DNA from: Geranomyces variabilis
Lineage: Eukaryota > Chytridiomycota > Chytridiomycetes > Spizellomycetales > Powellomycetaceae
DNA length: 64,000 nucleotides
Direction of reading: 5' to 3'
Assembly (NCBI GenBank): GCA_027603065.1
Contig: JADGJP010000043.1
Span: 142,594 to 206,593, forward strand
The notes beneath the pieces are model-generated. The model had not been told where the DNA came from and did no database searches. It was given only the letters and a program-made list of their open reading frames with translations. A program made the position numbers and the translations under genes. Of the stretch, positions 28,988-61,636 are shown piece by piece. The first letter of the stretch is position 1, and each line of letters begins with the position of its first letter.

Positions 28988-29468
28988 ATGACCAGCCAGC
29001 TCCCGGCTGCCATCCGCCGCCACCACCCAACACTCTTGGTGTTCCTGGCGCAATTCACCATCATCCTGGTCTTGGCTCTCTTTGGTGTACACACCTTTCC
29101 TGGCCAGTGTCTTTGCGATGATGCAAGACAGCCAGACTACGAACGCTTTTCAACGCCAGGGCTCTTTGTCAGGTACTAATCACAAGCAACGCAGCCAAGC
29201 ACAGCTTGTTTCTCTGATATTTCTTTCGCTCAATTGCTTTTCTCAAAGTGACGCAACTTGTGCGCAGCGTGCAGAATCCAAGGGCTGGGGGCAGTATTGC
29301 TTTCCAGGGGCTTCCGGGTACATGGCCGTCGTGCCCGACTTGGCTTCTCCAGCCTACTCCACCTGGGTTCTCCTGCTTGTCTTCCTTGGGGGAGTCGTTC
29401 CCGTGATCATGCTTTGTGCAGTAAATCCAGGTCTCCGCAGGAAGTTTTATGGGAACTTGTGTGATTAG
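28988..29468 (+). CDS. Two-pass membrane protein, divergent member of the Cys-loop family
   Basis: Two exons, 28988-29172 and 29249-29468, join in phase 2 and give 134 aa. A first span (LLVFLAQFTIILVLALFGV) is followed by a Cys-bearing loop (GQCLCDDARQ, then SDATCAQR and QYCFPG). A second span (WVLLLVFLGGVVPVIMLCAV) and a short basic tail (NPGLRRKFYGN) complete it. Span-loop-span layout, a CxC near the first span and a phase-2 intron just before the next Cys are shared with the genes at 35105, 36229 and 61102. The proline-rich LPxY tail is missing here. A broken copy of its first exon lies at 42.6 kb. Function unknown. The homology rests on layout and intron position more than on residue identity. 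Confidence 0.6.
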
Positions 29469-29856
29469 CCCGTGCGCGGGTAGCAGTGGCCAAAACCAAC
29501 AGACGTTCCGAGTGCTGGACACTTCACCCGTTTGCATACACTACTGCTCAAGCGTTAGATATACTGTATATAGCATCATCTGAAAAAAAAATAGAATGGT
29601 CCCGGGTTTTGTCGGAGTATTCCAGTTCAAACACGGCCCGCTTTGGCGGGGGAAGGTCTTGCGGTCACCGCCGTTTCCGCGCGAGGGCGGTCGCGCGTGT
29701 CAGCCACATACTGTAAAACAACCAACAGCACCGCCATAATGCGCAGGTGCCTTCACCACCACGCACTTGGCACTTGTTCTGCATGCTGACGACCCGTATC
29801 GCCGTCACGGCACGCTCCCCTGGCAAAGACTTTCAAGCAGCGACCGTTTCAAAAGG

Positions 29857-30330
29857 TCAGTAGCGCGAGAAGGTCAACGCGGAACGATGTAAGGCATCTC
29901 GTCGGTCTCCGGGACTGGCCACATTATTATTATTGCTATCGGTGGTTCCCTCCGGCGTGCAACGCTCAATGAGCCGGGCACGGGCATCAGGCGCATGATG
30001 CGTGTCAAGCGTGTCGTGCGAAAAGTTAGTCTTCCTTCCCGAGCCCCTCCCCTTCGGCGGTTGGGCAAGCGATTGAGTGCTTTCCTGTTGCTGGGCAGCC
30101 AGTCCCAAAAGAGTATCGAAGGATGTTTTTATTGCTTTTTTCCTCCTTCGGCGTGCAACGCTCGTCACCCTACATGGGATCGCATCCGCGATAAAATTGA
30201 TGAGCCGGGCACGGGCATCAGGCGCATGATGCGTGTCAAGCGTGTCGTGCGAAAAGATAGTCTTCCTTCCTGAGCCCCTCCCCTTCGGCGGTTGGGCAAG
30301 CGATTGAGTGCTTTCCTGTTGCCGACCCAT
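29857..30330 (-). CDS. Hypothetical basic protein with in-frame internal duplication
   Basis: Read from the first ATG at 30330 the ORF gives 157 aa. It contains two nearly identical copies of a segment beginning QQESTQSLAQPPKGRGSGRK and ending HDTLDTHHAPDARARLI, offset by exactly 231 bp, or 77 codons. Frame-preserving duplication and near-identity suggest a translated sequence, but no domain is recognised. It is rich in Arg, Gln and Ser. The frame stays open upstream without an ATG, so an upstream exon is possible. It could also be non-coding repeat that is open by chance. Confidence 0.35.
   Translation of the reverse strand: MGRQQESTQSLAQPPKGRGSGRKTIFSHDTLDTHHAPDARARLINFIADAIPCRVTSVARRRRKKAIKTSFDTLLGLAAQQQESTQSLAQPPKGRGSGRKTNFSHDTLDTHHAPDARARLIERCTPEGTTDSNNNNVASPGDRRDALHRSALTFSRY
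29970..30090. repeat. Direct repeat, copy 1 (121 bp)
   Basis: This copy begins TGAGCCGGGCACGGGCATCA and ends CTTTCCTGTTG. Copy 2 lies at 30201-30321 with only a few mismatches. Confidence 0.9.
30201..30321. repeat. Direct repeat, copy 2 (121 bp)
   Basis: This is the second copy of the 29970-30090 unit, offset 231 bp. The flanking CGGCGTGCAACGCTC is shared too, but here about 35 bp of extra sequence separates it from the repeat core. Confidence 0.9.
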
Positions 30331-30772
30331 TTTGGTCGCGACTTTGGTATGAAAGCTGACTTTTGTGGTTTGAAGACTCAGCGTTACTGACCATGGCCCT
30401 TGGTTTTCGAGCCCACTTTGCAGAGACGCATTGAACTTAAGGCCGTGAACCTGGCATATACCTTTTTCGCATGTGCAAAGTCGGCATGGCAATTCATCGC
30501 TATTAGGTACGATTAATTCTCATACAGCGCCCTTCGCTCCGCGGAACCTTGTCTGACCTTCTGGAAAGTGTAGCGGCCCTTGAAGACCCCTCGCTGTTAG
30601 TGAATCCGCAATTGAGTTAACGGCGCCGCCATTGCTTCACAGAGCATCCCGCGCGGCCCGCGCCAACTCTTAGGTACGAGGAATTAGGCCTGTCTGTGCA
30701 GGCGGCGCTGAGCGAAAGCTAGTCTGGCGCATATGACAGTGTGGAACTCTGGGGACAAAAGAGGCGACAGGT

Positions 30773-31064
30773 CTAATTCACGATATCACCGGCGAGTCCT
30801 CGCACGCACATTACACGATGTTGTATGACCGCAGTCAGTATATGAATAGTATTGTGCCACCAACAGTTGTATTGGTCGGCAATGAAATATACAAAGTCCC
30901 TCTCGCTACCGCGCTTCACCTCGTGTATCACGTACAGCTCTGGTGAAAACTGGACCGTTACGTAGAACGACACCTCGCGGTCCAGGATGTGAAAGGAAGG
31001 CACAATAATCTTGTCGGCAACAGCCGGGCGGTGCGCAATCAGCCGCCGGATTTGTGCCCTGGAA
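30773..31064 (-). pseudogene. Gene fragment of unknown family
   Basis: An open minus-strand stretch with coding character reads VPSFHILDREVSFYVTVQFS, then ELYVIHEVKRGSERDFVYF, and ends at a stop. No ATG starts it. The frame is cut on its 5' side by the long inverted repeat at 31065. It may be the detached 3' part of the decayed gene to its right. I do not recognise the family. Confidence 0.35.
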
Positions 31065-31165
31065 CAGCCAGTGGACAAAAGTCGGAGATGCCCCACAGCC
31101 GCCAAGCAGTGCACTCTCTTCCTGCGAAGATTTTTGGGGGATCTCCGACTTTTGTCCTCTGGCTG
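31065..31165. repeat. Perfect-looking hairpin: ~29 bp inverted repeat arms, 42 nt loop
   Basis: The left arm starts at 31065 (CAGCCAGTGGACAAAAGTCG and on to 31094). The right arm is its reverse complement at 31137-31165 (CGACTTTTGTCCTCTGGCTG at its end), with about two mismatches. It looks like a miniature inverted-repeat element or a palindromic junction. Confidence 0.85.
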
Positions 31166-31323
31166 TAGTTTTTGCCAGACTCAGATAATCGCTTTTGGCG
31201 TGCTTCAAATGCAGCCGTGCTCCCGGTCCAGAGTTCTCCGCACATCCATGCTCCCGCTCAGCAATGGTGAAGTCAACATTTTTGCCTCGGCGGGCTGCAC
31301 CCGAGCGTTCCGTCTTCTCGCTC

Positions 31324-32280
31324 TAGTCAGATGTCGACATCATGTCGCCATACGTCAACTTAGGCATACCGGGAACCTCAGCAAATGCCAGCGCTGCCTG
31401 AGCATCGAAGGGACGCTCGCCCAGTGAGTATTGCGCGTACTTGCTAATGTACGCTGCCATTGCTTGGAGACATTTCACAATGTACCGCACGTCGGCATTG
31501 CCGCCAAGGTAAGAGCCTGCACCGCAGCAATACATGCCGACTGCCAGTCTGTCGCTGATGCACGGTGAACACCTGTAAGTTCTTGCGCTTTCTGCAAGAC
31601 GTTTCACTCAGATTAAAAAGAAAACGCGGCGAAGTTTTGCAGATCGTAATTTGTACGTGCCAATGACCGGGCCCGGTAGGCCTCAAGTCCAACCTTACAA
31701 CCCACAAGGACGGATGCGAAAAAGATCTCACAAACTGAAGGGGTGGTCGCAGGAGGCGGCCGAAATAAAGGCCAAATGCATAAGGGGGTTGATCGTCGGA
31801 CTCGTGTACAAACTGGAGCGAGTGCGAGGGGTTCCCATTGTTGTCGTGCGATAAGAAAAAAAACATTTCTTCACATTGGTAAGCACGCCGAAAACGCCAG
31901 CTTGTGCTTTCTTTGCCCTGCGCCTGGCGTGACATGTAATCGCCATATCGCCATATACGTCAAGAGCTGCTTGCGGCCGGCGGGTGTTATCGCTGTCTTG
32001 GCTGCGATAATCAGGGAAACGTTTTCCACTTTGACCCCGGCTGGTTCGCCGATAGACCAGACAGTAGTCAGCGTCTCCATTGAGGGTAAGCTGGGCTTCT
32101 CCGTAATGTTTGAGGGGGTTTGGGATTGGAACCCAGACGAGCGACGTGTTCCATCGCTTCGGTCAAGCACATGTCGATCTTACTTGCGATCCAGAAAGGA
32201 TAGGGAAGCGTCCACGGCCGGAAGCTGATTCAGTTTCTGAAGGTCCAGAAGGTACGGGCGCGACGTAGCGCTCGAGTGGA
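31324..32280 (-). pseudogene. Decayed PD-(D/E)xK-like (Crinkler-type) protein gene
   Basis: Coding traces change frame several times. From right to left they read LQKLNQLPAVDASLSFLDR, AQLTLNGDADYC, then (next frame) VKVENVSLIIAAKT followed by RKQLLTYMAIW, VFGVLTNVKKC, then after a shift in a T8 run FFLSHDNNGN and SLQFVHES, and finally KCLQAMAAYISKYAQYSL near the stop at 31324. A GDADY strand followed by LIIAAKT resembles the D...ExK core of PD-(D/E)xK nuclease folds seen in Crinkler-like proteins of chytrids and oomycetes. Here the Glu of ExK would be Ala. At least two frameshifts and no intact start make it a pseudogene. The family assignment is tentative. Confidence 0.45.
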
Positions 32281-32650
32281 GACTCGACGTCGACACCCGT
32301 CACAGTTTGGGCTTGGTCAGCGGCCAGATTGCGACGGAGAATTGTTGCCGGTCAGCCCCACGGCGCTGAGAAGTTCTTGGGCGTTCGCGCCGCGACTCAG
32401 CCTGTTGTTGTAGCTTTCCAGAAGGGACGGACGGCAAGGACGAGGAGTCGCGGAAAGCCGCAGGCTACAACGCCGACGCAGGAAAGAAAGCGCGACTTGC
32501 CGCTTGTGGTCGGTGACTTGTGGGCGCATGTTCTTCCTTCTTCCTTCTACGAATCCTCGTCCCAAAGAGGCTGTTGCAGTGCACTCACTGTTCCTGACTT
32601 TTCGCCCCCACGAACACCTCGTACCGTTTTTGTTTGCGGCTGCAATGGCG

Positions 32651-32661
32651 AGATATAAAAG
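32651..32661 (+). promoter_or_regulatory. TATA box of the chitin deacetylase gene
   Basis: AGATATAAAAG lies about 85 bp upstream of the ATG at 32739. Confidence 0.6.
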
Positions 32662-32738
32662 ACGCAGAGCGGTGGTCGCTGCCCGCCTTCTTGCCTGCAG
32701 CAGCCTCGTTTCTCCACTCTCAGCCTAGACCGACGGAA

Positions 32739-34169
32739 ATGAAGCTCTCACTGGTGCTGTCCCTTGCTTTGGCCGGGAATGCCCTCGCGCACCCTAAGAA
32801 ATGTCATCACGGCGGAGCGGCGGTGACCTTGACAGCCTCGCCCATCGAAATTCCCACCGGAACTGGCGACGAGCCAGGATACCCCAGCGGACCCCAGCCC
32901 ACCTACGCTGGCAACAACGCCCCGTCAGTGACCGTTCTTCCCGGTTCGACCAAAACAGTTGTTGTGGCCTCGACCTTTGTTTCTACCCTCCCCGGGACTG
33001 TTGCCACAATCTCGACCGGTCACGGATCGACAGTTATCTCACGCCCTCCGGTCACGACCACAGTCTCAACCGCACACACCATTGTCACCGTGGTTCCCGG
33101 CTCTACCTCGTCCGTTGCCGTCACTCCGGCCTCGCACAGCACTTTGGCTCCGTCGTCGACGTCGACCCGCATCGTTCCGACCGGAACCCCCGGTCCCGAC
33201 GGTCAATGCGGCGTGAAGGGTTGGATCTGCGGCAAGGGTGAATGCTGCTCCAGCAGCGGCTACTGCGGAACCACCGCGGATTACTGCGGCAACGGCTGCA
33301 ATCCCGCCGCGGGTTTCTGCCTCCCCACCCCACCTTTGCCCCCCGTGCCCACTGACATTTCGGGACGCGACTCCAACGTCCCCGCCAAGGTCATCGAGAA
33401 CTGCGTGAACAAGGGCGACGCTGCTTTCACATTTGATGATGGACCGGGAGTCTACAATACAGAGCTGCTGGCCGTCTTGAAAAAGTACAACGTCAAGGCT
33501 ACCTTTTTCATGAACGGTAACAACTACCAGTGTGCCCTCGAAGAGAAAGGCGCGGCAAGCGTTCGCGCTGTGCTCGCTGCCGGCCACCAGCTTGCTAGGT
33601 AAAGCACGGCTTCGCTCGCTGCTTTGGCTTTTATGGTTTTACTCAGTGACTAACACCTTGGCTTCCCCACCAGCCACACCTGGTCGCACCCGATGCCGTT
33701 CAACGAACAATCTGCCGGACAGACGCTTTATCAAGTGCGCAAGAATGAAGACATGTTTGTCCGTCTTATCGGCGAAACCCCCAAGTATTTCCGCCCTCCT
33801 CAAGGCCAAATCAATGACGCCCAAGTCAAGCAGATCGCTGCCCTCGGGTACAAGATTATCAACTGGTCGATCGACACTGAAGACTCATTGGGTAAAACCT
33901 GGCAAACTTCCGAAAAGACCATCCAGACCGAGCTCGACGTCAACAAGCAGCAGCACCCATTGATCCTCAACCATGAAGTTATCGAAAACACTGTTCGCAA
34001 GGTCATTCCCTGGTTCCTCGAGAAATACAGCAAGCGCTTCAACTGGGTTACCGTCGCCGAGTGCCTCGGAGACCACTCCAAGCCTTACATGACGGTTCCC
34101 CTGCTCGCCGGCTCCAGCGGCACCTGTGTCGATTCTGACAAGGACGGCTCGCTCCTTCCTGGCCAGTAA
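32739..34169 (+). CDS. Secreted chitin deacetylase with CBM18 chitin-binding domain
   Basis: Two exons, 32739-33598 and 33674-34169, join in phase 2 (451 aa). A signal peptide (LSLVLSLALAGNALA) leads to a Ser/Thr/Val-rich linker likely to be O-glycosylated. One hevein-type CBM18 follows at about 157-195 (QCGVKGWICGKGECC, then SGYCG and DYCG). The NodB deacetylase domain carries all five motifs: AFTFDDGP (metal and base Asp), SHTWSHP (metal His pair), YFRPPQGQ, INWSIDTED and LILNHEV. Members of CE4 remove acetyl groups from chitin to give chitosan in the wall or periplasm. No C-terminal GPI signal is seen, so it is probably soluble or bound through the CBM. It is intact, with its own TATA box, beside decayed sequence on both sides. 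Confidence 0.95.
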
Positions 34170-35104
34170 AGCAGGACGGTGTTACCCTCTTCCTTATGAC
34201 TCTTCCTCCCTCATGGCGTATGCGGTCGTTCTTCCGCCCTTGCCGCATTATCCCCCTGTTGCATAGACTAGGGCGTAAAAACCACCCCCGCTATACTTAG
34301 ACGCGCTGTTATGGAAAGTAAGAATTGCCCCATCGCTTTTCTATCGCGCTCTGTTTTTGAAATACAGTAGTAGCCTTGCCGGACCATAGCCTGGCCGGAC
34401 CAGGACACGAAAACTCTGGCACCGGGTAAAATTCCCTTGCAGCCGCCGATACAAGGGCTTGCTCAACGTCGCGCTTGCGATCTGACGATTGCTTGGATTT
34501 GCCCGTATACTCCTGTCGCTGTGAACTACGAACGCCTTACTTTAAATCCGGAGTTTACTGAGGATTGAGGCCGGCAATACATATGCCAGCGTTGAAGAAC
34601 AAGGCAGTCAGCGGTCGCGAAAAGCGCAGCGGCTTCGAGCCGCATTGTGGGAGGGGCCGACACTTTCGTTAGGGTAAGATGCCAGACCACTACCATGCTA
34701 GGTATCGCCCGCCGCAAACCTTGACGAGCTTTTCTTCAAAAAACTGGAAATTCACGCCACTCCGATCACTCTACGGTCCACCGTCACTCCCGCTCCTGCC
34801 CCTAACGCTGCCGTAATGCGCTCTATGGTCGGAAGGGTCGAAAAGAATACTCTGTGCGATTCAAGTACTCGAAGCTACGGAGTGTCGCACAAGTGCTTCA
34901 CCCATGGCTTGACTGTACCGGGCCAAGCCGCTTGTGTTAAGTAGCCCAATGTGCCCGCTTGCACTTCATGGTCGCCGATCGGACCTAAAGACGCGACTTG
35001 CCTCAGTCTGCGCTCATCGCCACGAATATTTGCTACCCTATATTTCCAAAAAGTTTGTCTATGTCTACGGATATCGCGACATGTATGTTCCTTTGAGATG
35101 ATTT
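34170..35104. repeat. Subtelomeric decayed sequence; partial copy of the 62.46-62.83 kb region
   Basis: No gene is intact. 34683-34720 (GACCACTACCATGCT...) matches the 3' end of the lectin-like gene at 62457. 34830-34980 (CGAAAAGAATACTC, TCGAAGCTACGGAGTGTC, GGCCAAGCCGCTTG, TTCATGGTCGCC) matches 62655-62832 in the same order. The CGGCTTCGAGCCGCATTGT block at 34628 recurs at 35910. Confidence 0.7.
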
Positions 35105-35677
35105 CTACTTTTTGGGCGCAACATACGACGGTGGTGGCCGCATCTCATCCTTGCCACCCGGGGATTGCGCGGCCGCAAGGTAAGATGGAAGGTATTCCAT
35201 CGCCATTCCAGCTTGGTTTCGTGCCTCCACACTACCCTGATTGGCCGACTCCCGCCGCGAACGAGAGAAGAAGTAGGCCGTGCTTATCAATCCGCCCAGC
35301 GCACAGACACAAAAAATGCCGAGGAGGATGAGATTGTAGCCCTGGTTGGAGCAGGTTGCGATCCAATAAAGCCCTGGGCCATCGCATTTTTCGATCATGC
35401 CATTTCGGTTGAGCACGCCTTGCTTGAGTGCTTCATCTGGACACTCGCTTGTGTGGCTTTGCGTAAAGAACATAAAGGAGACGTGAGCAAAACGAGCATC
35501 TCGATTGTTTTTCGTCTTCGACAACCCGTACATAATTAACTTCCGGGCAACTTTGATGTGCACGTAATCCTCAAAACACCAGCATTGACACTCGGACTGA
35601 AGGTACAGGGCCAAGAAGAGGCCCAGAAAGATGAGCGCCGGAAGAAACGACAATAGGGTAGCGCACAGGGTATGCAT
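35105..35677 (-). CDS. Two-pass Cys-loop membrane protein with LPxY and PPxY tail
   Basis: Exons 35677-35532 and 35456-35105 give 165 aa. The first span, LIFLGLFLALYL, is followed by SECQCWCFEDY and a loop with further Cys (SECPDE, EKCDG, ATCSNQ). The second span, LILLGIFCVCALGGLISTAY, is followed by a basic stop-transfer (SRSRRES) and a Pro/Ala tail with YLPSYLA (LPxY) and PPPSYVAP (PPxY). LPxY and PPxY are known ligands of WW domains in Nedd4/Rsp5 ubiquitin ligases. The intron is inferred although the frame stays open through it, because removing it restores the Cys spacing of the relatives at 36229 and 61102 and puts a phase-2 junction at the same site. Without splicing the product would be 190 aa. 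Function unknown. Confidence 0.72.
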   Translation of the reverse strand: MHTLCATLLSFLPALIFLGLFLALYLQSECQCWCFEDYVHIKVARKLIMYGLSKTKNNRDARFAHVSFMFFTQSHTSECPDEALKQGVLNRNGMIEKCDGPGLYWIATCSNQGYNLILLGIFCVCALGGLISTAYFFSRSRRESANQGSVEARNQAGMAMEYLPSYLAAAQSPGGKDEMRPPPSYVAPKK

Positions 35678-35697
35678 GACGAAAGCCGGAGGTTTAC

Positions 35698-35891
35698 AAG
35701 TCTTTTCGGGGCTTTCCGCACGCCCTTTCCCTACCGCCGGAGGCTGGAGGTGAAGACTGTACGTATTTTATTCTACAGTAGAAAATGGTGAGGGAGGGGG
35801 GGGGGGAAGGAAAGGAGGGGTTGGTCTCTACGGATAAGTAAGTGCCCGCTCCGCAGGCAGCACGTTTGCGACAACTCAGTCCGCATGCGGT
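35698..35891. repeat. Dispersed subtelomeric repeat, copy 1
   Basis: About 190 bp match 60905-61087: ACGCCTTTCCCTA-CGCCGGA near the start, GACTGTAC, a G-rich run, then GTGCCCGCTCCGCA and GCAGCACGTTTG. Both copies are in the same orientation. Confidence 0.75.
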
Positions 35892-36060
35892 GGGAAACCC
35901 GCAAACCCGCAGCGGCTTCGAGCCGCATTGTTGGCGGGCCGCAACTTGCAAGTTGTGGCCGCTTGCGACCCCCCCACCTTAGGTGTGTCTGTATACAGTA
36001 AAGCCGCAAGCCGTCGGACCGCAAACGCAGACCGCATCTGGTGCCAGCTTGATGGAGTGA

Positions 36061-36160
36061 CAAAAAAAATAGGGGTCCACTTTATTCGGCCGCTACAGAT
36101 GCAACGATGGCGGTGCTGGTGGGCAGCGGCAAAGGGATGGTCCGACTCACCGCTGCCGGC
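36061..36160 (+). pseudogene. Remnant of the lectin-like gene promoter and first codons
   Basis: GGTCCACTTTATTCGGCCGC matches 61941-61965, and CAAAGGGATGGTCCGACTCA matches the start-codon region of the lectin-like gene at 62069 (MVQLT there, MVRLT here). Homology stops after about ten codons and the frame is not the gene's thereafter. Confidence 0.65.
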
Positions 36161-36228
36161 CCGCCACCGACATTACAGCCCTCCCTCGCACGCACTCGCA
36201 TTTGCAGCCTCCGCGATTGCGATTGCAC

Positions 36229-36845
36229 ATGGCCCCCACGCCGCCGCCTGCATGGCGCTCCTTCATTCCCGCCGGCGTCGTCCTGCTCCTGCTTGTCGTC
36301 TTTTACCTCGCCCAGAACTGCCAGTGCTGGTGTTTCAATGACGACTACCTCGTCGATGCCGGCCGCAACCTAATACTGTAATTGCCCTCCCGCCTGCACC
36401 CAGCCCCCCCTCACCCCCCTCCTTCGTCGTTCCCGCCCCTTCTCACTCCCTTCTTGTCTCCGCCTGCAGCTCCCCCTCCATGTGCTCAGGCCACGATACC
36501 AAGCCCCACGGCAGCCCTTGCTTCGACAACTATTGGGTGCCGAGTTGCCCGCTCCAGTCCTTCATATACGGCGCACTTGGCCTGCTCGCTGTTTGCGTGC
36601 TTGGTGGTCTGATGAACGTTGGCTGCTGTGTGCCCCGCTGGAGACGGGCCATGGAAAGACGGGGTCAGCCCGCCCAGGCCACAGACGACCAGAGCGATGC
36701 CGCCAGTGCGTCCCACCCGCAGCAGCGCGCATCCGACCTTGAACTTCCGCCCTACGCCGCCGCCTCCCACAACCACGTGTCGGCCGCTGCTGCGCCTGCA
36801 TACACTACTGCCGTCGATGCAAAGGAAGATACACGCTGGCCGTGA
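36229..36845 (+). CDS. Two-pass Cys-loop membrane protein with LPxY tail
   Basis: Exons 36229-36377 and 36470-36845 join in phase 2 and give 174 aa. The first span is FIPAGVVLLLLVVFYLA, then NCQCWCFNDDY, a loop with Cys in SPSMCSG, GSPCFDN and VPSCPLQ, the second span FIYGALGLLAVCVLGGLM, a C-x-VPRW stop-transfer and an Ala/His-rich tail with DLELPPYAAAS (LPxY). It matches the 61102 protein in CQCxC, the R-x-LI run before the intron, the CVLGxL second span and FVPRW/CVPRW. The 3' part of the tail is low-complexity Ala. It starts about 70 bp after a remnant of the lectin-like gene, in a duplicated block. The function is unknown; membrane signalling or trafficking through WW-domain partners is inference from the tail. 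Confidence 0.72.
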
Positions 36846-37115
36846 CACATCTCGTCGCTCGACCTAGGAGGGGACTCACGGAAACATGCACGCGAAATAG
36901 TGCACAACAGCTCGCGAGCCTCAGCCGCGAAATCTCCCATCTCAATGTGCCGAGCCTCGGGCATTGCTTTTCGCACCCGAGCGGGGGTGTGCTGGTGGGC
37001 TGAGCAGGGGCAGTGGAAGTGGAAGTGGTGGGCACGGCGGGGAGACTGCAAGAGGACAGGCAGAGACCCTGACGATGCATGATGAGCGCGCAGTTGAGGC
37101 CCGGGTTGAAGGCAC

Positions 37116-37565
37116 TCAGATGGTCCGTCGTGATGCCGTCGGGATGCCTGCGGTGTTAGCAATTGCCCAGCAAGCGTCGCCAGTTTTCACAGTGTAACGC
37201 TGGCACACGGTGGTAGCCGCGCAAGCACCGCAGACGCAAGTGTTCCCGCTGCGGCAGGGGGTTTTGGTGTTACAGCCCCAACTAGCGCAGCCCCAGGTAC
37301 ATGGCTTGCAAACATTGTCGAGACACTCCTTTTGGCCGGGCAAGGACGGGTAGCGTGGCACTGCGATATCGAAGCCGGAGCGACCCCTGAGATGCAATAA
37401 CCGTTGGAACAGCTATTTCCTGCACGGCAAGGCTGCTAGCAGAGCACGACCAGCCGGCGCATCCCCAAGAGCAAGCTCTGCAGAAGCCGTTGAGGCAATC
37501 TTTGTCGCTAGCGCAGCGGCGCGTGGTATCGCACTCGGCGCCGGTTCCGGCAGAGAGGCGACAAA
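37116..37565 (-). pseudogene. Truncated Cys-rich / LysM protein gene
   Basis: Read right to left, a Cys-rich segment (AECDTTRRC, DCLNGFCRACSWGCAGWSC) is followed after a one-base frame change by CRAGNSCSNGYC. A second, parallel Cys unit (ECLDNVCKPCTWGCASWGC, CRSGNTC) leads into CQRYTVKTGDACWAIANTAG, the opening of a LysM chitin-binding domain. The frame then drifts and stops at 37116. The 5' end, with any signal peptide, is missing: the coding trace stops at a short telomere repeat at 37566. It is a secreted chitin-binding protein relic by family knowledge of LysM. Confidence 0.6.
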
Positions 37566-37582
37566 TAGGGTTAGGGTTAGGG
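37566..37582 (+). repeat. Interstitial telomeric repeat
   Basis: TAGGGTTAGGGTTAGGG gives nearly three TTAGGG units in the same orientation as the chromosome-end telomere 26 kb away. Confidence 0.85.
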
Positions 37583-37893
37583 CGTCAACGACGATGCAGA
37601 TATAATCAAGTAGAGAGTGGGGCCCGAGTGAGGTTGGGAACCAGCATTATGGAGACGACAGAACTCTAGAGCTGCGCCAGACAGTTTTTGACAAAAATTC
37701 AAAGCAAAAGCAGGCCCCTACTCGTACGCGCCATGTCTATTTCTGACCCCCGTTTTTAAGTTGACAATTGCCACGGCTGAGGCTCGAGCCTCTCCATAAT
37801 GTAGTCGATGTTGCGCTTCTATTTGCCTGATTTGCTTTGTTTCTCCTTCTTGAATCGCCCTTGATGGCGTGGATTCTAAGCCCCCGGTGTATA

Positions 37894-42557: not shown

Positions 42558-42818
42558 GTGGTCATCGTGTCGGAGTCTCACAAAAGTTATGTACCCGCCC
42601 CGATTCCCCATTCCCCATTCCCCCCAAAGCAAACGACCACCCAGCCCCCGCCCGCCATCCGCCGCCACTACCTAACACTCTTGGTGTTCCTGGCGCAATT
42701 GTCTGCTGCGTCTTCTGCGTCTGCTGAAGACTTGTTCACTTGCAAGAAACAAAAAACGGCGAATAGTCGCCACCGGAGAGACGGAAGGTCGATTTCAAGA
42801 TGTAACTCCTATCACTGA
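42558..42818 (+). pseudogene. Broken copy of the 28988 membrane protein's first exon
   Basis: 42597-42700 matches 28966-29060: GATTCCCCATTCCCC, then GCCATCCGCCGCCAC and ACTCTTGGTGTTCCTGGCGC. It encodes IRRHYLTLLVFLAQ as in IRRHHPTLLVFLAQ. After that point the sequences diverge and no second exon follows. Confidence 0.7.
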
Positions 42819-43309: not shown

Positions 43310-45342
43310 ATGCAAAGCCTCGGCAACTACTCGCTCTTGGCAGCGGCAATCCTCTCGGTGACACTCATCTGGCCAGCCTCTGCGATCACAAATGCCGGGT
43401 TTCAAAGATACAACGCGATCCAGGCAGTGGCCGGAGATTCCTTGTTCATCTTGGGCGGAGGCAACTGGGTGTCCACTTTCAACAATGCCACCATCGTCAA
43501 TTTGAAGAGTTGGACTGTAGAGAATCATCCTCTCGCACCGGGGAGCAACATTTCGTTCGGAGCTGGAGCTTCGTGCTTCGCAACAGGGAACACGGAAATC
43601 ACTTGCATCGGCGGGGAAGGGCCGTACAATGGTCCAACGTCCAACATAGGGAAGATCGATTTCGCCAATCCGGCTGCAATATCTGTTAGCGTCGTTAGCG
43701 CCGGTGTGCAGGGTCTCCCGCCTGTAAAGAACTATGGTGCCGCTCGGTTGGGAAACTCTGTCTTTCTTTATGCGGGCCAATCACGTAAGAAAAAAAGAGA
43801 GAGAGAGAGATATGCGAATGCACCTCAGGTGACATTTCTCTCATTTCCATAGCAATCTTTTTCTCGTGGCAGAATTTTACCAGATCGACAACCTGTTGGC
43901 ATTGCCTGCGGTGGCACGCAGTGTTGCGGACCCCACGACCCCGACGGATCAAGGCTCGCATTGCATGGTGGCGATAAACAATAATGCTTTTTTCGTGCAA
44001 CCGACAAACACGAGCGGAAGCGCGGACGCCTTCATCTACATGGTCGGAAGCGGCTGGCAGACCGTTTCCCGGGCCGTCCCCGAAGCAATTCGGAAGAGAG
44101 AGTTCACAACTTGTGTGTTTTCCGAGAGCGATCAGAACGTTTCATGTTCGGTTCTTGGTCGCAGACTCAACCGCTCCAAAACGATCTGTGGGTTTTCAGC
44201 ATGCAGACCCGCGAATGGCGCCAGGTGCGGACGGCGGGAGCGATGCCTGCGCTGGCACATGAGTGGGGCCTTTTGTCGGCGGGAAAGTATTTATTGGCGT
44301 TCAATGGGGCGAGCTCCAATTTGTACGTCTTTGACGTTGCAAAAACCGCTTGGGTTTCCAACGCGTCTGGGATACCGTCAACGCCGTCCGATCCTGCACC
44401 CGCAGGCGGGCCGACCACACCCGTACCCTTGCCGTCAGGCGGACCGCATGATGGAGGGTCAGGTATGAAGAGCAGATTTGAACCGAGGGAGTTTGTTATC
44501 TTGACATGATTTTTCCACCATTTCTGTTCGGTGTTTTCGATTTCCAGATCACGGACGCTTTCCGATTGCAGGAGTCGCAACTGGTTGCGCTCTTTTCGCT
44601 CTTGTCGTCGCCGTTGTCATCGCGGGTGTAGTATGGCATCGAAAAAGACAAAGAAGCCGGCAAGCGGACAAGTTGGTTTCGTTTCATGCGTCGCCTGATC
44701 AACATGCCCGAGAAACGCCTCTTCCTGTCCGCGATGATGCGGAACGCGGCGCAGCTGCAGCTGCAGGCCCGGAAATGCGAGACTCGGAATATCAACCGGT
44801 ACACCTGTCCACGCTGAAGCTTTTTGAAGCTTCCGTCGGCGCTCCAGTGGTGGCAACGGCGTCACAAAGCGATGCACCTCCTTCGTATGTCGAAGCTTCC
44901 GCCAGCCGAGCAGCTCTTGCTAGAGGTTCCTCCAGGGGGTACGAAGGATCGTCGAGCATGCGTCAGAGTTTGGAAAAGGGAGCGGCAACAATTCAAGCTC
45001 TGCCGCGGAATCCCTACGTGGCGGCCACCAGATTCCAGGGCTCTGCCCCAGACGAGTTGACATTGGAAGTTGGTGACATTGTGTGGATCACGAAAAGGAG
45101 GATGACTTTTGTGAGAAAGAAAGAGTTTTGTTGCTGACTGACTTTTCCGCAGATCTGAAAATTCCGACGGGTGGGTGCAAGGTACCAATATCACTCGGAA
45201 TACAAAAGGCGTCTTCCCAGCTTCCTGCGCCCAGCCAAAAACGGTGAGCGGGGGAAACAAGGTTCAGGCTTCTTTCTTTAAGTTAACCATTTTTTCTTTC
45301 TCCCTGCAGTTGTGGGACGCAAAGGCGGTTTCATCTTCTTGA
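43310..45342 (+). pseudogene. Kelch-TM-SH3 membrane protein gene with frame lesions
   Basis: Coding parts are 43310-43784, 43873 to about 44146, about 44148-44467, 44549 to about 45095, 45153-45247 and 45310-45342. The signal peptide LLAAAILSVTLIWPASA leads to Kelch-like blades (SLFILGGGNW, NDLWVFSMQTREW, GKYLLAFNGASSNLYVFD). A Pro/Gly-rich linker and one span (GCALFALVVAVVIAGVVW) follow. The cytosolic tail has APPSYVE (PPxY) and an SH3 domain (YVAATRFQGSAPDELTLEVGDI, SDGWVQG, GVFPASC). One T appears to be missing near 44146, shifting the frame inside a Kelch blade, and the SH3 exon lacks a GT donor at the phase needed for SENSDGW. A sequencing error is possible; otherwise it is a recent pseudogene of a wall- or stress-sensing receptor type. 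Confidence 0.7.
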
Positions 45343-47258: not shown

Positions 47259-47271
47259 CAGCCTCACACCT

Positions 47272-54893: not shown

Positions 54894-56503
54894 ATGACCT
54901 CGAGCCCATCCCAGCTCTTCTCAGAGCGCTCACCCCGGCTCTTCCCAGAGATCCTCGCTAGAGTCGCCCAGTTCGCAGACTTCGCCGATGCCCTCAACCT
55001 CGCCTGCGCTTCCCGCGAGACCTATGCGGCAGTCGGCTCCCGCACACTCTGCTACCGCCTTGTCCACCGCTGGTTTTCTCAAAACTCAGACGGCCCGTAC
55101 CTCTTTGAATGTTACCAGTCATGGATCCCCGCCCACATGTAAGAACAACCCCTGACTATCCGCCCGCCACTGCCTTTCCTGGTCCTGACTTCTCTTCCAG
55201 GTACCTCGACGTCGTGTCGGCCATGGTCCTCGCTTACGGGAAGGAGAGTGCCCTGCACAACTTCGAGCTCATCCTCTCTCGCGCCGCCCAGCTCAAAGAC
55301 ATGGCTATCGTCCGCTTTGTTTACGACCAGGGGCCCGAGTTTCTGCGCGAACATCTTCGCCGCACTCTCGACGAGGAAGAGTACAACCGCGACCACACGT
55401 GGTGGCTCGTGGCATTTGCCATACGAGGCTTTGTCGACGGCGTCAAGTGGCTGGTCGAGGATATGGGCCACAGCCCCTGTGACCTGGTATATCTCACCGA
55501 CGTAGAGCGCAACCCGTTTCAGAACATGATCGGGTATGACTGGTCGCCGTTCCGCCTCACCGTGCGCTCGCCCCGGGAAGCCGCGCTGCTGGCCTCCGAG
55601 TACGACGTCGTCGTCTACCTGGAGGACTGGTGCGCCGACAACTGCCCGGGAGGCGACGCCTGCGGAGGCCGCCCCCGCCATGCATTCAAGTACGCAGCAG
55701 CGTTCTACGGACCCGTTTCGCTGTGCCGCATCGCCCAGTGGGACATTGACACGGTCGACATCCTCGAGTTCATCCACCCCTGCATCCCGGCCTCCCACTC
55801 CAATGGCTGGATTATCGAAGTCATGGACGAGGCTGGCCGAAGTGGCTCGCTCCCCGTCATCAAGCTCCTGATCGACTGGTACGGCGAGCCGCTGGACCCC
55901 GGCTACCTCCCCCTCGACACCGCTCCCCTGGGCCAGTACCAGCGCTTCAGTTACCGCGGCCAGTCTGGTCGTGCCCCAGACGCCACCATGCGTGACCGCT
56001 GCGAGGATGTCCTCATCCACCTCCTGGAAATCATGGTTGAGAGCCCTGACGAGCTGCAAGGCTGGCGCGCCCATGCCCAGATTTATGCCCTGCGTGAACA
56101 GCTCGTCCGTGTCCTCGCCTTCCTGGCCCCGTTTGTCGGCAACCGCCTCACCCTCCCTGCCGCCCTTGACGAGCTGTTCGACGAAATCTACCCGTTCCGC
56201 AAATCTTTGCTGCAACACCTTGCTGCACTGTCCCTGGACATTGCCCCGTACGCCGAGCGGATATTGGTGCACAACCAGGATTGCTGGACCGCGGGGCGGA
56301 ACGAGGACAAGGCGGACCTGCTGGCGTACTTGCATGACCTTGCCCAATGGGATCTGGCTGTGGACGACGTGGGACTGCGCTTGGTCGAGATGTACGGACG
56401 ACACTCTGACTGGAAGGACGAGCGCCGCGCGTGCCTCGAGTACCTGCGGAACAATGGGGCGCCGGCCCCCGAAAAGGGTTGGGCGGCTTTGATCGGCGGT
56501 TAA
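54894..56503 (+). CDS. F-box-like / ankyrin-like repeat protein
   Basis: Two exons, 54894-55138 and 55201-56503, join in phase 2 and give 515 aa. The F-box-like part is LFPEILARVAQFADFADALN. Shared blocks with the 50102 gene are VDGVKWLVEDMGHSPCDLVY and SPREAALLASEYDVVVYLED-WCADNC, so the two are paralogues. The remaining repeats (LPVIKLLIDWYGEPLDPGYL) are ankyrin-like. Codon use is strongly GC-biased in third positions and the opposite strand is therefore also open. The plus strand is preferred because of its splice sites and paralogue matches. Confidence 0.78.
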
Positions 56504-58348
56504 GTTGCCAAGTCCCCCCTGCCACACCACATCAAATCACCTGTCCCGCTGCCGATCACACACACCACACCTAATTCGTTAGAATCCAGAACGTTTTGGA
56601 AAATGAAATCAAATTACTTCTCTATCTTTCGTACGCCGATGAAGGGGCAGTGAGTGGTTAATGGGGAGCACTCTTGTTCTATCAAGTTTAATCCTCTATG
56701 GGTCAAGGGAGGGGACGACAGCGGATTGCATTTCTTCAAGCGCCAATGACGGTGGGCTCGGACGTGCAGATAAGCTCTGCGACGAAAGGACGGCTGCATC
56801 CGAAAGCACTGCTGAATGATCCGCGGGTGAATCCAGCCGCGAACAACAACTACGCCATGAAGGCGGCGCGCCGAAAGCGCCTCTACACCCGCCCAAAAAC
56901 GACCGCCTCCCAAGGCTGTCTCGCTTCGGACACAGGCGAATCGGACGCGACACGAAGCCGTTACAGCTCAGCTGATTGATTTGCTGTCAGAGATGGAAGA
57001 AGCGCGGATGGTGGAGGTACGTCGTTTGCGCGCGGAGGCGGCAACGGATAGCCGCGCGGCTCTTTAAGAAGCCGGGCTTTAAGCAGAGGCTTCCAATGAG
57101 GCGCTGCTGGAGATGGTGGCAAGGCTGATATTGATGGGCAGGGGAGGTTATGGGCACGGGATTCATGAACGGCACGCGTAATAAACAAAAAACCGGTGAC
57201 AACAACACGCTCTCATGGCTTCATCGCCGTCTTCTTGTGGAGGCGGCAGCTGCAACCGAGCTCCCGATCTTCCCGTGACCACCGCCCCCATCACAGCTCC
57301 TGCCCCTACTCCTGCTCCCACTGCTGCTCATGCACAACGCGCCCGCCACCGAAACGGATGCACGAGAACGGCGTACAGCGAATCTGACCGGTCGGAGCCT
57401 GATGACTGAAAGCGATGAAGACGGGGAGGAAGAGGACGACGTTCGAACGAGCCCGGATGTGGAAGATGATGGGGTTGCGGAGCCCCATGAGGACGACGTG
57501 TAATTGGTAGTCAGTGATGACGAGATCTGATGAGAAGGAAGGCGTGCTCGGGCAGAGGGGGAGGGGGGTCATCTGGAAATTTCATTTGCGGAGCATAGCT
57601 CTGTCTTGTAAATAATGTCCTTTTTTTGGAACCGTTTCAAAAAATATGTCGCTTTGTAGCCTGTCTCATATCGTCAGTCGAGGCGCCCTCCAGAGTAGGT
57701 CGGCAGTAGTATCACGCTGAGCCTTCGCCGCGACCCTTTCCACGCTAGTTGACACTTGAAATAGGCGCCCCACTGCTCAACGATCGCCTTCCATATCCAG
57801 CTCCACCCAGCGATCAAGATGCGGACAATCATCTCGGTTTGAGGCCAGGTTATGCAGTATTATGCAAGCATAAGTGATGATAAAGGCTCTTTTGGCACAG
57901 TCGCGCTAATTTGTTCTCTGCTTTTCTCTCTCTTCCACACATACCGCCGAAAATCGCCGTCAATCCACTGCTCGAGCGGTAGTTACGCCTGCGCCGTCTG
58001 CCGTCTGTCGTTTCAACACATTTCTCTCCGTTAGTCCGTCCACCGCACCAGATTTCGACACGGTAATTACAATCGATCCGCAGCTTGAGTTGTTTGTTTG
58101 TATTAACGTTCTCACCCCCAAGCGTTCGAAGTTCCGCTCCCACTCGGCCCATGCCTCGTTCCCCTCTTCCGCTTCATCTACCACATCACCGGCTCCTTCC
58201 GTGTCAACCTTCGCCAGCATCCTCGCCATCCTTTTTTTGAACCCTTCCATGTAGAGGTCAATCCCGCGCTGCGCTAGAGGGGCGTATACGTCCTGGTGGA
58301 GCCTGCAGCTCGTTCCTCCTCCTTCGAATCCACGTATTTTGATTGCAG
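56504..58348. other. Intergenic with decayed coiled-coil/acidic coding traces
   Basis: Plus-strand traces read AQLIDLLSEMEEARMVEVRR near 56966-57065, AEASNEALLEMVARLILMG near 57080-57140, and an acidic MTESDEDGEEEDD run to a stop at 57500. They are out of frame with each other and separated by stops. They look like one dead gene with a heptad-rich middle and acidic tail. On the minus strand at 57960-58300 a helical stretch (YMEGFKKRMARMLAKVDTEG) could be a lost exon of the next gene. Confidence 0.4.
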
Positions 58349-59494
58349 TCATGGCCCTTCCCAAACAAAATCAAGCCCCTCTTCTGAATCCTCCAAGTAC
58401 TGCCGCATAGTCGGAAGGTACGCGTTGTACAGTCCAAGAATTCGGCGTCTGTTTCGCGCGCTGGGCGACTTCATCCAGTTAGACACAATTTTCCAAAGGT
58501 GCAATTTGTCACCGTGCGCCATGAACTCTTGCCGAGCCGCTTCGTCGGTCGGGTCGGGCTTTTCTAATAAACGGCCAGATTCAAGCTGGATGCGAGTGGC
58601 AGTCCAAAAACTTTCGCCAAGGTAGTATTTCCAGTAATACTCGGCAATATGCGGTGCCATGAGGCGCGCGCGGATGGCCATGCACGAAGATTGCAAAGCG
58701 ACAACGCCCCTCAGTCCCGCATTGCCTTCTAGATAGTTTATATCGCGCAAGAGTTCCAGGATCATAAACAGGATCTCGTCCGGAAGGGTCGCCAAGGGGT
58801 GATCGGTTTTTCCTTGTGACGACGGCCGGATGACTCTAGTGACGACAGCAGGCGACCCTGCGGGCGCAGGAGGCAAGTCTTGAAGCGAGTATGGTGCGAG
58901 GACCCAGATGTCTTCAGGTCGATGGAGCAAGATCACCGGCACATTGTCGGAGTAATGTTTGTCCTCAACGAGATACCTGAGCGGGCCGTAGGGATTTTTG
59001 GCCCCAGCGGGAGATTCGAAATACCCATAGGGTGCACATTTGTCGATGTAGAAACGATATGCCTGACCAAGAGTAAGACCGTCATCCTCCAGCGCCTGAC
59101 GAAGCTCCTTTACACAGTAAGGGTGAATAGGAATGGCGACGCCATAGCCAACTTCTTCGGGGTCACCAAAGTAGTTGAAACGCAGGTCAAACGGATTCTG
59201 GCCGCTGCCCGTCCAACCGTAGTTGCGTTTTCCCTCGCCGTATCCGCCATTCACATAATCGAAAACGGCAGATAACGAACCGTCTCGAAGGATGCCCTGA
59301 ACGCCGTCGAGCCACGAGGTATCGTAGTTAGCGAAGTCTGGGGCAAGTGTGATTGGCGAGCGTTCGTTAGGGACGCTAAAGGAAGGGGAGGGGAGCGAGG
59401 AGGGGCTTGGAGGGCCGACCGTAGCAATTCTGTTTCCGATTGGAGTGGAAATGAGGCCGCAAAAGACGCACGGACTGTATAGCTGGTGCATCAT
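58349..59494 (-). CDS. Hypothetical protein with F-box-like C-terminal half
   Basis: The longest supported reading starts at MMHQLYSPCVFCGLISTPIG (59494) and gives 381 aa. The frame is open further upstream to 59674 but with low-complexity Ala. A CxxC lies at the N-terminus and a Pro/Ser linker follows. The middle block is rich in aromatic residues (GYGVAIPIHPYCVKELRQAL). The F-box-like segment is LATLPDEILFMILELLRDI, followed by LQSSCMAIRARLMAPHIAEY, the usual F-box pattern of an LPDEI start and a C-x-R-x3 helix. It ends with a Trp-rich helical region. A C-terminal extension through an intron near 58350 is possible because helical coding sequence continues on the same strand. Confidence 0.65.
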   Translation of the reverse strand: MMHQLYSPCVFCGLISTPIGNRIATVGPPSPSSLPSPSFSVPNERSPITLAPDFANYDTSWLDGVQGILRDGSLSAVFDYVNGGYGEGKRNYGWTGSGQNPFDLRFNYFGDPEEVGYGVAIPIHPYCVKELRQALEDDGLTLGQAYRFYIDKCAPYGYFESPAGAKNPYGPLRYLVEDKHYSDNVPVILLHRPEDIWVLAPYSLQDLPPAPAGSPAVVTRVIRPSSQGKTDHPLATLPDEILFMILELLRDINYLEGNAGLRGVVALQSSCMAIRARLMAPHIAEYYWKYYLGESFWTATRIQLESGRLLEKPDPTDEAARQEFMAHGDKLHLWKIVSNWMKSPSARNRRRILGLYNAYLPTMRQYLEDSEEGLDFVWEGP

Positions 59495-59790
59495 GACGGC
59501 GGCGGCGGCGGCAGCGGGCTCGGTGCGCACGCAGCCTGAGGCCCCCTGGGTAAACGCTACTGCACCCACCACCATTTCAACCCCAGACGCTTCAGTGTGT
59601 GCGAGAACTACGAGTCCCGCTTGCTCGCAGGAGTTCCTATCGGGTCGCCAACCCTTCCTCTTCCCCCTCCCCATTCCTCTCCGAGCCCCTCTCAGTCTAC
59701 CCTATTGAAACTTGTGGCTTCGCAGGTGCTCATGGGGAAAGTACAAAGAGAAACTCTCTCTTCCCCCCCACCACCACCACCACGCAGACA

Positions 59791-60057
59791 ATGAGCCTGG
59801 TCTCAATCACCGCCGCCCCTTCTGCCCTCGCCACCCCACAACCCACCTATGCTTCGCCTTTGGATTCTCCAGACTACGACAAGGACTACACCGGCGACAC
59901 CTCGGGCAAAGCCCTTCGCCCGATACTGGCAGTCTGCTTCTTCGGCGGCATCCTCCTTGCCGGGCTCACCCTCGCGGCCTGCCTTGTCCGTAGCAGGCGA
60001 AGGGCCAACAAGCGCCTGGATCCAATGACCGGCGACGTCCTCGTCGGTGAGCGATAA
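59791..60057 (+). CDS. Small single-span membrane protein
   Basis: An ORF of 88 aa from ATG to stop. The N-terminus is a Ser/Thr/Pro-rich extracellular-type segment (SPLDSPDYDKDYTGDTSGKA). One span follows (PILAVCFFGGILLAGLTLAA), then a Cys and a strongly basic stop-transfer (RSRRRANKRLD) with a short tail. The orientation is N-out by the positive-inside rule. No family recognised. It diverges from the F-box-like gene 297 bp away. Confidence 0.5.
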   Translation: MSLVSITAAPSALATPQPTYASPLDSPDYDKDYTGDTSGKALRPILAVCFFGGILLAGLTLAACLVRSRRRANKRLDPMTGDVLVGER

Positions 60058-61101
60058 GGAGCGTTGCTGTCAAACGAGCACCGTTGCTGTTTCCAAAACG
60101 CAAAGGCCCCGAGCAGGCCCCGCGAAATCCACTTAGCAGGCCTCCTTCAAGCGCGTCCGCTACATACCCCCCCCCCCCTCCCTGCCCTGCGCTGGCGTAA
60201 CGTGGGCTGCTGCGTAGATGCGGGCATTGAAAAGCATGCAGATCATAGCAAGGATAGACCGTAAGCGTTGTCTACGGTAATATATTCTGCTTGTTAAACT
60301 ATACAATGACAAATGTGAACGGACCCACCCTATGATCTCTGTCTGGGCGCGGCGCCTGTCGCGGGTGTAAGGATGCGAGACCGTGTCCGATGACCACCCT
60401 GTAAAAGGGCTTCGACCGTGCCTACTGCTCCGCGGCGATCGTCGTCCCAACGGACGGGTGCAGGCGGACTCGATCGTGTCGCCTGCCCAGTACCGATCAA
60501 GTCGACGCAGGCACCGACATTTGTGATGGACGTTCGGTCAACGACCTCCCGCTAATGACGATCTTCAAGTAAGCAGCTTTGTCAACTCTGATTTGGACCC
60601 TAGCACGAAATTCCGAAACACATCGTCAGCCGGACGGACAGCGCGGCTCTCCAACTGTCGAACTGTTGAAGATCGGAGACGCGTTGAAAGCCGTTCCGGC
60701 GCTGACGTGACTTTTGCTGCGAGAGCTGAACAAAATCGACCCGATTTGATTTCGAAATGAACAAGGGAGCTGACCCTCAAGCCTTGATGCTGGTGTTGGC
60801 TGGCGGAAAATGGCCATCCACTCGTCTAGTGGCAGGCGACTTTCTTGAAGCCAAAGGAGGTCAAGCACCGCGGCCTTCCGCCGCGCTGCACTCTTATCGC
60901 TCCTCACACGTCTTTTTGGAGCTTCCGGCACGCCTTTCCCTATCGCCGGAAGCAGGAAGTGATGACTGTACATATATAATTTTAAAAAAATGGGGGAGGG
61001 GGGCAAGCATGCGGCGTGGAATGGTCGGTTCCAATGCAAAACGTGCCCGCTCCGCATGCAGCACGTTTGAGACAACTCAATCGCATGAATTACTCGTGTG
61101 T
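60058..61101. other. Subtelomeric non-coding stretch
   Basis: No intact gene. It holds a poly-C run near 60168-60180 and, at its right end, the dispersed subtelomeric repeat copy 2. Confidence 0.5.
60905..61087. repeat. Dispersed subtelomeric repeat, copy 2
   Basis: Partner of 35698-35891 in the same orientation. Here it lies after the stop codon of the Cys-loop gene, whereas copy 1 lies before the start codon of its paralogue, so the repeat moved or was duplicated independently of the gene. Confidence 0.75.
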
Positions 61102-61636
61102 CTACTTTCCACCAGCAGCGGACACTGGTGGCGGCGGCGGCGCAACATAAGGCGGAAGATGCTCGGAGTCATCTAGGCCTTGATCTTGTTGCTGCACATT
61201 CGCAGCCCGATTGCCCTTTTGCCAGCGAGGGACAAAGCAACGGACCTTTATCAATGCGCCAAGCACGCAGAGCCCAAAAACGCCAAGAAGGTAACCACTT
61301 AAGTCTTGAGTATTGCAATGCGCAAGCCATTGGCTGCATTTCTCGGTATCGCCATGGGAGTTGCGGAAGTTATGCTTGATGGCTTGTGATTCGCAATCGC
61401 TCTCGCGGCTTTGGGAAAACAAAACTCAAATGTGAGCAAAAATGGGGTGCTCGAACAACTTTGCACAGAAACCCATCCATTTACAAGATCAAGAATCGGT
61501 CAACGATGTAGAGCATGTTGTCGCCGTAGCACGAGCACTGACACTCTGTCTCTGCATACACCACGAAGAATAAAGAGAGACAGAGGAACGCCGGAATGCA
61601 CGAAAGAAGAAACAAACGCAGAGTGGAGGGAGGCAT
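61102..61636 (-). CDS. Two-pass Cys-loop membrane protein with LPxY tail (telomere-proximal member)
   Basis: Exons 61636-61485 and 61408-61102 join in phase 2 and give 152 aa. The first span is LFLLSCIPAFLCLSLFFVVY, then TECQCSCYGDN, RFLIF before the intron site, loop Cys in ESDCESQ, TEKCSQW and LAHCNTQ, the second span YLLGVFGLCVLGALI, FVPRWQKGNR as stop-transfer, and a tail SEHLPPYVAPPPPP (LPxY plus polyproline). This member is the cleanest: without its intron the frame would break. It is transcribed away from the lectin-like gene at 62069 with 432 bp between start codons. WW- or SH3-domain partners are suggested by the tail motifs; function is otherwise unknown. Confidence 0.78.

What the first reader, a model, noticed from the sequence alone, without database searches (positions are those of the whole stretch)
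28988..61636. Undescribed subtelomeric family of two-pass Cys-loop membrane proteins with LPxY/PPxY tails
Four genes (28988-29468, 35105-35677, 36229-36845, 61102-61636) encode 134-174 aa proteins with the layout span - CxC(xC) loop - phase-2 intron - further loop Cys - span - tail. Three share CQCxC[FY], an R-x-LI run just before the intron, a CVLG/CALG second span and a tail with LPxY, one also with PPxY. LPxY/PPxY are established ligands of WW domains in Rsp5/Nedd4 ligases. A lineage-specific receptor- or adaptor-like family amplified near a telomere is inferred.
Basis: partly seen in the sequence, partly recalled or inferred. Interest (0 to 1): 0.82.

Follow-up and report, generated by a model that had tools for sequence, protein, structure and literature searches.

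The report
Chytrid membrane adaptor-like gene trio
Near one chromosome end of the chytrid fungus Geranomyces variabilis lie three related genes for small membrane proteins with a cysteine-rich loop and a tail carrying a likely docking motif for a protein-disposal enzyme; relatives were found only in other strains of the same species, and a fourth gene proposed as a member does not clearly belong.

Summary
The sequence observation holds almost letter for letter. The window is the telomeric end of a contig of the chytrid Geranomyces variabilis. Genes B (35105-35677), C (36229-36845) and D (61102-61636) form one family: about 32-39% identical, same phase-2 intron place, exactly six cysteines between two hydrophobic spans, and a tail with LPxY (B also PPxY). 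No pair's alignment score was reached by any of 2000 segment-preserving shuffles. Gene A (28988-29468) is real (84% identical in another strain), but membership is not supported: 759, 46 and 168 of 2000 shuffles reach its scores against B, C and D; it has four loop cysteines and no PY tail. Homologues were found only in G. variabilis. Broken-looking fragments (three B/C-type, two A-type) lie elsewhere in the genome. One of six HECT loci found carries three WW domains, as in Rsp5/NEDD4. Best reading: lineage-restricted PY-tailed membrane adaptors for that ligase, working like yeast Bsd2/Rcr1 or animal Shisa/WBP1/CYYR1 proteins, but not members of the Shisa-like or RCR families by cysteine order or profile. 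The mechanism is inferred; binding and expression were not shown.

The parts
35105..35677 (-). Gene B (NCBI HDU88_006359), 165 aa: span 1 (8-26), six loop Cys 30,32,34,54,73,84, span 2 (91-109), tail with LPSY and PPSY; 75-nt phase-2 intron that is in frame without a stop
   Evidence: homologue P0002 142 of 165 identical, 9 of 9 Cys and both PY motifs kept
36229..36845 (+). Gene C, 174 aa: span 1 (11-29), six loop Cys 31,33,35,55,67,76, span 2 (86-104), tail with LPPY; 92-nt phase-2 intron
   Evidence: no closer homologue than B and D types was returned
61102..61636 (-). Gene D, 152 aa: span 1 (8-26), six loop Cys 32,34,36,56,75,82, span 2 (92-110), tail with LPPY; 76-nt phase-2 intron; about 2.3 kb from the telomere repeat
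   Evidence: homologue P0003 (strain HDU87; model lacks most of exon 1) 91 of 112 identical, LPPY kept, 4 of 5 aligned Cys kept, the lost one (108) at the end of span 2
28988..29468 (+). Gene A, 134 aa: two spans, four loop Cys (41, 43, 66, 79), phase-2 intron of 76 nt, no PY tail; membership not supported
   Evidence: homologue P0004 (labelled partial) 112 of 133 identical, 6 of 6 Cys kept
42596..42700 (+). Fragment of the 5' end of gene A (91% DNA identity over 106 columns), ACG at the place of the start codon
63929..64000 (+). Telomere repeat TTAGGG, 12 units

Best explanation
B, C and D encode a Geranomyces-restricted family of small PY-tailed membrane adaptors. The N-terminal span (signal anchor or signal peptide) puts a six-cysteine loop into the secretory lumen or outside, where it recognises a membrane or secreted cargo. 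The second span anchors the protein, and the cytosolic LPxY (in B also PPxY) binds the WW domains of the Rsp5/NEDD4-type ligase, so that cargo or the adaptor itself is ubiquitinated and sorted to the vacuole. Shown: gene models, family, six cysteines, hydrophobic spans, conserved motif, presence of a three-WW HECT gene, no relatives outside G. variabilis within the searches made. Inferred: orientation, WW binding, cargo recognition, sorting.
For: LPxY aligns at one place in all three paralogues at 33-39% identity and is kept in both strain homologues that cover it, P0002 and P0003. It is rare in shuffled tails (1.2, 0.6, 0.9%; LPSY-type plus PPSY-type together in B 0.022%). Arg/Lys cluster directly after span 2 (RSRRE, PRWRR, PRWQK), as expected for a cytosolic side (positive-inside rule, recalled). 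Third codon positions differ most in all three pairs (0.64, 0.52, 0.61 against 0.41-0.50 at positions 1 and 2), as under selection on the protein. Of six HECT loci found, one (C78:135.7-137.7 kb) has WW domains beside it, three of them. Yeast precedent: Rsp5 has three WW domains that recognise PPXY or LPXY, and the membrane proteins Bsd2, Tre1/2, Ear1, Ssh4 and possibly Rcr1/2 are adaptors with such motifs (PMC2810449, passages).
Against: No expression, localisation or binding data. C and D have one LPxY each, a motif weaker than PPxY as far as I recall. The AlphaFold model of B is not usable (mean pLDDT 53.7), so the loop fold is unknown. Cargo is unknown. No closer homologue of C was returned, and D has only one partial-looking model. 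A DNA comparison of introns with exon 1 was uninformative: gapped identity 0.61-0.71 for introns (shuffled 0.62-0.71) and 0.71-0.77 for exon 1.
Confidence: 0.5

Rival explanations
1. The PY tail is only a self-removal signal: B-D are six-cysteine surface or receptor-like proteins that are themselves cargo of the Rsp5-type ligase, and the loop, not the recruitment of the ligase to others, is the function.
For: The sequence evidence is the same as for the adaptor reading; six loop cysteines kept in B between strains; the loop varies in length between paralogues.
Against: Proteins with little besides loop, span and PY tail resemble known adaptors more than receptors; no known domain found.
Confidence: 0.27
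2. Fast-turnover subtelomeric orphan genes with little or no present function; the PY motif is inherited but no longer matters.
For: Three B/C-type and two A-type fragments elsewhere; A, C and D of the window strain do not appear among the predicted proteins returned; D lies inside a copy of the B-C intergenic DNA.
Against: Frames and splice sites intact in three paralogues at 32-39% identity; third-position excess; motifs kept in the strain homologues.
Confidence: 0.15
3. The proteins are true, very diverged members of the Shisa-like/STMC6 or RCR families.
For: Same layout as Shisa-like proteins: cysteine-rich luminal part, span, PY tail (PMC5578492 section 6).
Against: Cysteine order CxCxC-C-C-C without adjacent pairs, against C*C*CC*CC; no Shisa_N or RCR match in a Pfam scan at E up to 1, whose filters drop most matches above about 0.1.
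Confidence: 0.06

Closest known systems
Yeast membrane-bound Rsp5 adaptors (Bsd2, Tre1/2, Ear1, Ssh4, possibly Rcr1/Rcr2)
   Same: Fungal membrane proteins with PY motifs that bring Rsp5 to cargo (PMC2810449 passages; Rcr1 and Rcr2 carry PPSY and VPEY, PMC5578492 section 6).
   Different: B-D match no RCR profile. That the yeast proteins lack a six-cysteine loop is recalled, not tested.
Animal Shisa-like (STMC6) adaptors: Shisa, WBP1, WBP1L, VOPP1, CYYR1, TMEM92
   Same: Short proteins with a cysteine-rich luminal part, a span and a PY-bearing tail; CYYR1 binds WWP1 through PPxY and sends it to lysosomes (PMC11399591 abstract and passages).
   Different: Cysteine order differs: C*C*CC*CC for most Shisa-like proteins (PMC5578492), C*C*CC*C*CC*C in zebrafish Shisa (PMC10531659 passages); B-D have no adjacent loop cysteines. 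No profile match, no Shisa_N match in the genome; first span perhaps uncleaved.
Drosophila Commissureless / human PRRG4
   Same: Short single-span proteins with an LPSY motif and a further PY motif (PMC5578492 section 6 and passages), as in B (LPSY then PPSY).
   Different: Comm lacks extracellular cysteines (same section); no sequence link was tested directly.

Membership tests
The B/C/D family itself | Similarity beyond composition and span layout | tested here: met
   B-C z 9.80, B-D 14.21, C-D 11.96; 0 of 2000 shuffles each
The B/C/D family: gene A | Similarity beyond composition and span layout | tested here: inconclusive
   759, 46, 168 of 2000 shuffles reach the scores against B, C, D; hhalign probability 3%, E 0.015; phase-2 intron shared
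The B/C/D family: gene A | Six loop cysteines and LPxY tail | tested here: not met
   four loop Cys (41, 43, 66, 79), no LPxY in its sequence
Shisa-like / STMC6 | Six luminal cysteines | tested here: met
   B 30,32,34,54,73,84; C 31,33,35,55,67,76; D 32,34,36,56,75,82 lie between the spans; that the loop is luminal is inferred
Shisa-like / STMC6 | C*C*CC*CC order | tested here: not met
   order is CxCxC-x19-C-x(11-18)-C-x(6-10)-C; pattern from PMC5578492
Shisa-like / STMC6 | Signal peptide plus single span | tested here: inconclusive
   two hydrophobic windows; no cleavage predictor available
Shisa-like / STMC6 | Profile match (Pfam Shisa_N PF13908) | tested here: not met
   no match for A-D in the Pfam scan at E up to 1; none in the genome at E up to 1
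RCR (Rcr1/Rcr2) | Profile match PF12273 | tested here: not met
   no match for A-D at E up to 1; the genome has one match under the cut-off, on contig C54 (E 0.056)
PY-motif adaptor of Rsp5/NEDD4 | [LP]PxY in the tail | tested here: met
PY-motif adaptor of Rsp5/NEDD4 | WW-HECT ligase in the same genome | tested here: met
   C78: three WW and a HECT domain side by side
PY-motif adaptor of Rsp5/NEDD4 | Binds WW domains and promotes ubiquitination of cargo | not testable with these tools
   needs bench work

The most novel reading that the evidence does not exclude
A chytrid lineage has independently built a counterpart of the animal Shisa-like adaptors: a six-cysteine luminal loop, span and LPxY tail with a different cysteine order, evolving by birth and death at a telomere. 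It would be a lineage-specific way to re-aim the conserved Rsp5-type ligase at surface proteins.
Probability: 0.3. Interest if true: 0.6.

Novelty: new variant of a known kind. Interest (0 to 1): 0.4.

Why it matters
If right, it shows ligase adaptors arising as young, species-restricted genes at a chromosome end, convergent in layout with animal Shisa-like proteins, and gives a small testable set of adaptors in an early-diverging fungus. If ordinary, it is still a clean example of an orphan gene family with intact copies and fragments in one genome.

Tried and rejected
Gene A as a fourth member: rejected for lack of support, though its intron phase and the cysteine five residues into exon 2 agree with the family. 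A mobile element carrying the genes: not supported, not excluded. Similarity of the B-type (C27) and C-type (C33) fragments begins 16 and 5 bases before the start codon, but the C27 copy runs about 33 bases into the intron, so it was not made from spliced RNA. DNA searches with 28500-29700, 34600-37100 and 60700-62500 gave 4, 5 and 4 matches, themselves included; that search skips simple repeats and very common words, so a common repeat could be missed. AlphaFold of B with seven rows: mean pLDDT 53.7, pTM 0.25, so no fold search was made. Solved structures: two weak hits, E 0.69 and 0.84, both to an acetylcholine receptor, taken as chance. Pfam: only hits under the curated cut-off (best SteA-like_C for A, E 0.0041). 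The LPSY at 23627 was set aside: it lies among hydrophobic stretches of a long frame, not in a tail; LP*Y at 1535 holds a stop.

Literature: six searches gave no title or abstract start, among those listed, about such a family: 'Geranomyces variabilis' + genome (7 papers), Shisa-like/transmembrane adaptor/PPxY (33, 20 listed), Rsp5 + adaptor + LPxY + transmembrane (10), chytrid + subtelomeric + gene family (14), Shisa + STMC6 (4), Rcr1/Rcr2/Rsp5/PPxY (5). Beyond listings I saw: section 6 and passages of PMC5578492, and passages of PMC10531659, PMC11399591 and PMC2810449. The STMC6 paper PMC3295595 is not held and was not read.
Full report
What and where. The window is the end of contig C38 (window = C38:142594-206593) of a 23.8-Mb genome in 91 contigs. 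NCBI's protein HDU88_006359 of Geranomyces variabilis, on a contig of 206,593 bases, equals gene B letter for letter, so the source is this chytrid (Spizellomycetales). The last 72 bases are 12 TTAGGG units.

Gene models. Each of the four stretches gives a complete frame after removal of one GT..AG intron in phase 2: A 76, B 75, C 92, D 76 nt, with products of 134, 165, 174 and 152 aa. NCBI's protein for B is the spliced one, and its homologue in another strain (P0002) has the same length. Whether those models rest on RNA was not seen. The B intron is a multiple of three without a stop, so an unspliced 190-residue form is possible.

Family. B, C and D are 32-39% identical. Against shuffles that keep the make-up of each segment (N end, span 1, loop, span 2, tail), scores stand at z = 9.80 (B-C), 14.21 (B-D) and 11.96 (C-D), reached by 0 of 2000 shuffles each. 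Each has exactly six cysteines between the spans. B, C, D and the strain homologues P0002 and P0003 (5 of 5) carry LPxY at the same alignment place, and B and P0002 add PPSY. In shuffled tails LPxY occurs in 1,229, 581 and 912 of 100,000 (B, C, D), and LPxY together with PPxY in B in 22 of 100,000. The three genes are homologous, so these are not independent events. Codon positions differ by 0.50/0.43/0.64 (B-C), 0.41/0.41/0.52 (B-D) and 0.44/0.43/0.61 (C-D), against 0.71-0.75 for random codon pairing. A comparison of introns with exon 1 at the DNA level said little: introns 0.61-0.71 identical by gapped alignment (shuffled 0.62-0.71), exon 1 0.71-0.77.

Strain homologues. B against P0002: 142 of 165 identical, 9 of 9 Cys kept. 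D against P0003: 91 of 112, 4 of 5 Cys kept; P0003 lacks most of exon 1, so its CxCxC part cannot be judged. A against P0004 (labelled partial): 112 of 133, 6 of 6 Cys kept. The homologues of A and B both show a longest contig of 248,783 bases, so they are probably neighbours there too.

Gene A. It has the spans, a CxC, a phase-2 intron and four loop cysteines, but ends 14 residues after span 2 without a PY motif. Its scores against B, C and D are reached by 759, 46 and 168 of 2000 shuffles, and profile comparison gives probability 3%, E 0.015. Whether it is a distant member is open.

Spread. Three protein searches (queries A2, A and A3) gave 3, 1 and 3 hits at E up to 10: four distinct proteins, all of G. 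variabilis, one being the window's own B. The two alignment searches scored only the 7,995 and 7,999 candidates sharing most words, and the method needs shared five-letter words, so distant relatives can be missed. In the own genome, protein searches with C (from residue 29), B, D and A gave, besides the window genes, C27:190610 (B exon 1, GTG at the start place), C4:290291 (B exon-2-like, a stop within, no exon 1 seen nearby), C5:371849 (A 3' end) and the A 5' piece at window 42596-42700. A DNA search added C33:218440 (C exon 1, first loop cysteines lost), and a short match of A's upstream flank on C40. That all five are dead fragments is my reading. Their differences by codon position are few and about even (B/C27 3,3,4 of 49,48,48; C/C33 6,6,9 of 42 each; A/42.6 kb 2,4,1 of 23,23,22), too few for a test.

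Locus history. Window 34794-35001 matches 62627-62856 (70%), 35696-35887 matches 60906-61087 (74%), and 36064-36115 matches 61932-61982 (87%). D therefore sits inside a rearranged copy of the B-C neighbourhood, which can explain local multiplication.

Machinery. HECT matches fall at six loci (C8, C9, C14, C45, C56, C78); the one with WW domains directly beside it is C78:135,696-137,729, with three. Pfam confirms two WW plus a partial HECT in one frame and one WW in the next. By layout this is the expected Rsp5/NEDD4 counterpart; no tree was made and its C2 domain was not tested.

How it may work. Arg/Lys-rich stretches right after span 2 place the tail in the cytosol (positive-inside rule, recalled), so the six-cysteine loop is luminal or outside. 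Yeast Rsp5 has three WW domains that bind PPXY or LPXY, and several membrane proteins use such motifs to help ubiquitinate transporters (PMC2810449, passages). In animals, CYYR1, an STMC6 protein, binds WWP1 by PPxY and leads it to lysosomes (PMC11399591, abstract and passages). The most likely role of B-D is the same kind of recruitment, with the loop choosing the cargo. Every step after the sequence facts is inference. The AlphaFold model of B (mean pLDDT 53.7) does not help.

Membership. Most Shisa-like proteins share six cysteines in the order C*C*CC*CC (PMC5578492, section 6 and passages); B-D have CxCxC-C-C-C and match neither Shisa_N nor RCR (genome-wide). They may work like these adaptors but are not filed as members.

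Verdict. A real three-gene family, not found outside G. variabilis and not found in print in the listings, with an adaptor-like layout; the four-member claim is not supported; the mechanism is plausible and untested.

Noticed in passing
window 34794-36115 and 60906-62856: The B-C neighbourhood and the D neighbourhood are rearranged copies of each other; D sits inside the copied intergenic DNA.
   Followed up: partly
window 43310-45134: Kelch-like protein with a span, a PPSY motif (44877) and an SH3-like stretch in the tail (kelch and SH3 by eye; no Pfam hit for the pieces 43833-44465 and 44505-45134): another, apparently unrelated PY-tailed membrane gene in the window.
   Followed up: partly
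window 32739-34170: Secreted-looking chitin-binding polysaccharide deacetylase (Pfam PF01522 and PF00187 on 32598-33599), between genes A and B.
   Followed up: no
window 29969-30091 and 30200-30322: Direct repeat of 123 bases, 98% identical, downstream of gene A.
   Followed up: no
L034 4800-5071 (C5:371800-372070): Words of the A-type 5' flank (CCCGCCCCGATTCCCC) stand directly before the A 3' end: looks like a copy of A lacking the coding middle.
   Followed up: partly
window 62069-62521: Small secreted-looking protein next to the telomere, no Pfam match; a stretch at its start also matches 36125-36158, between B and C.
   Followed up: no
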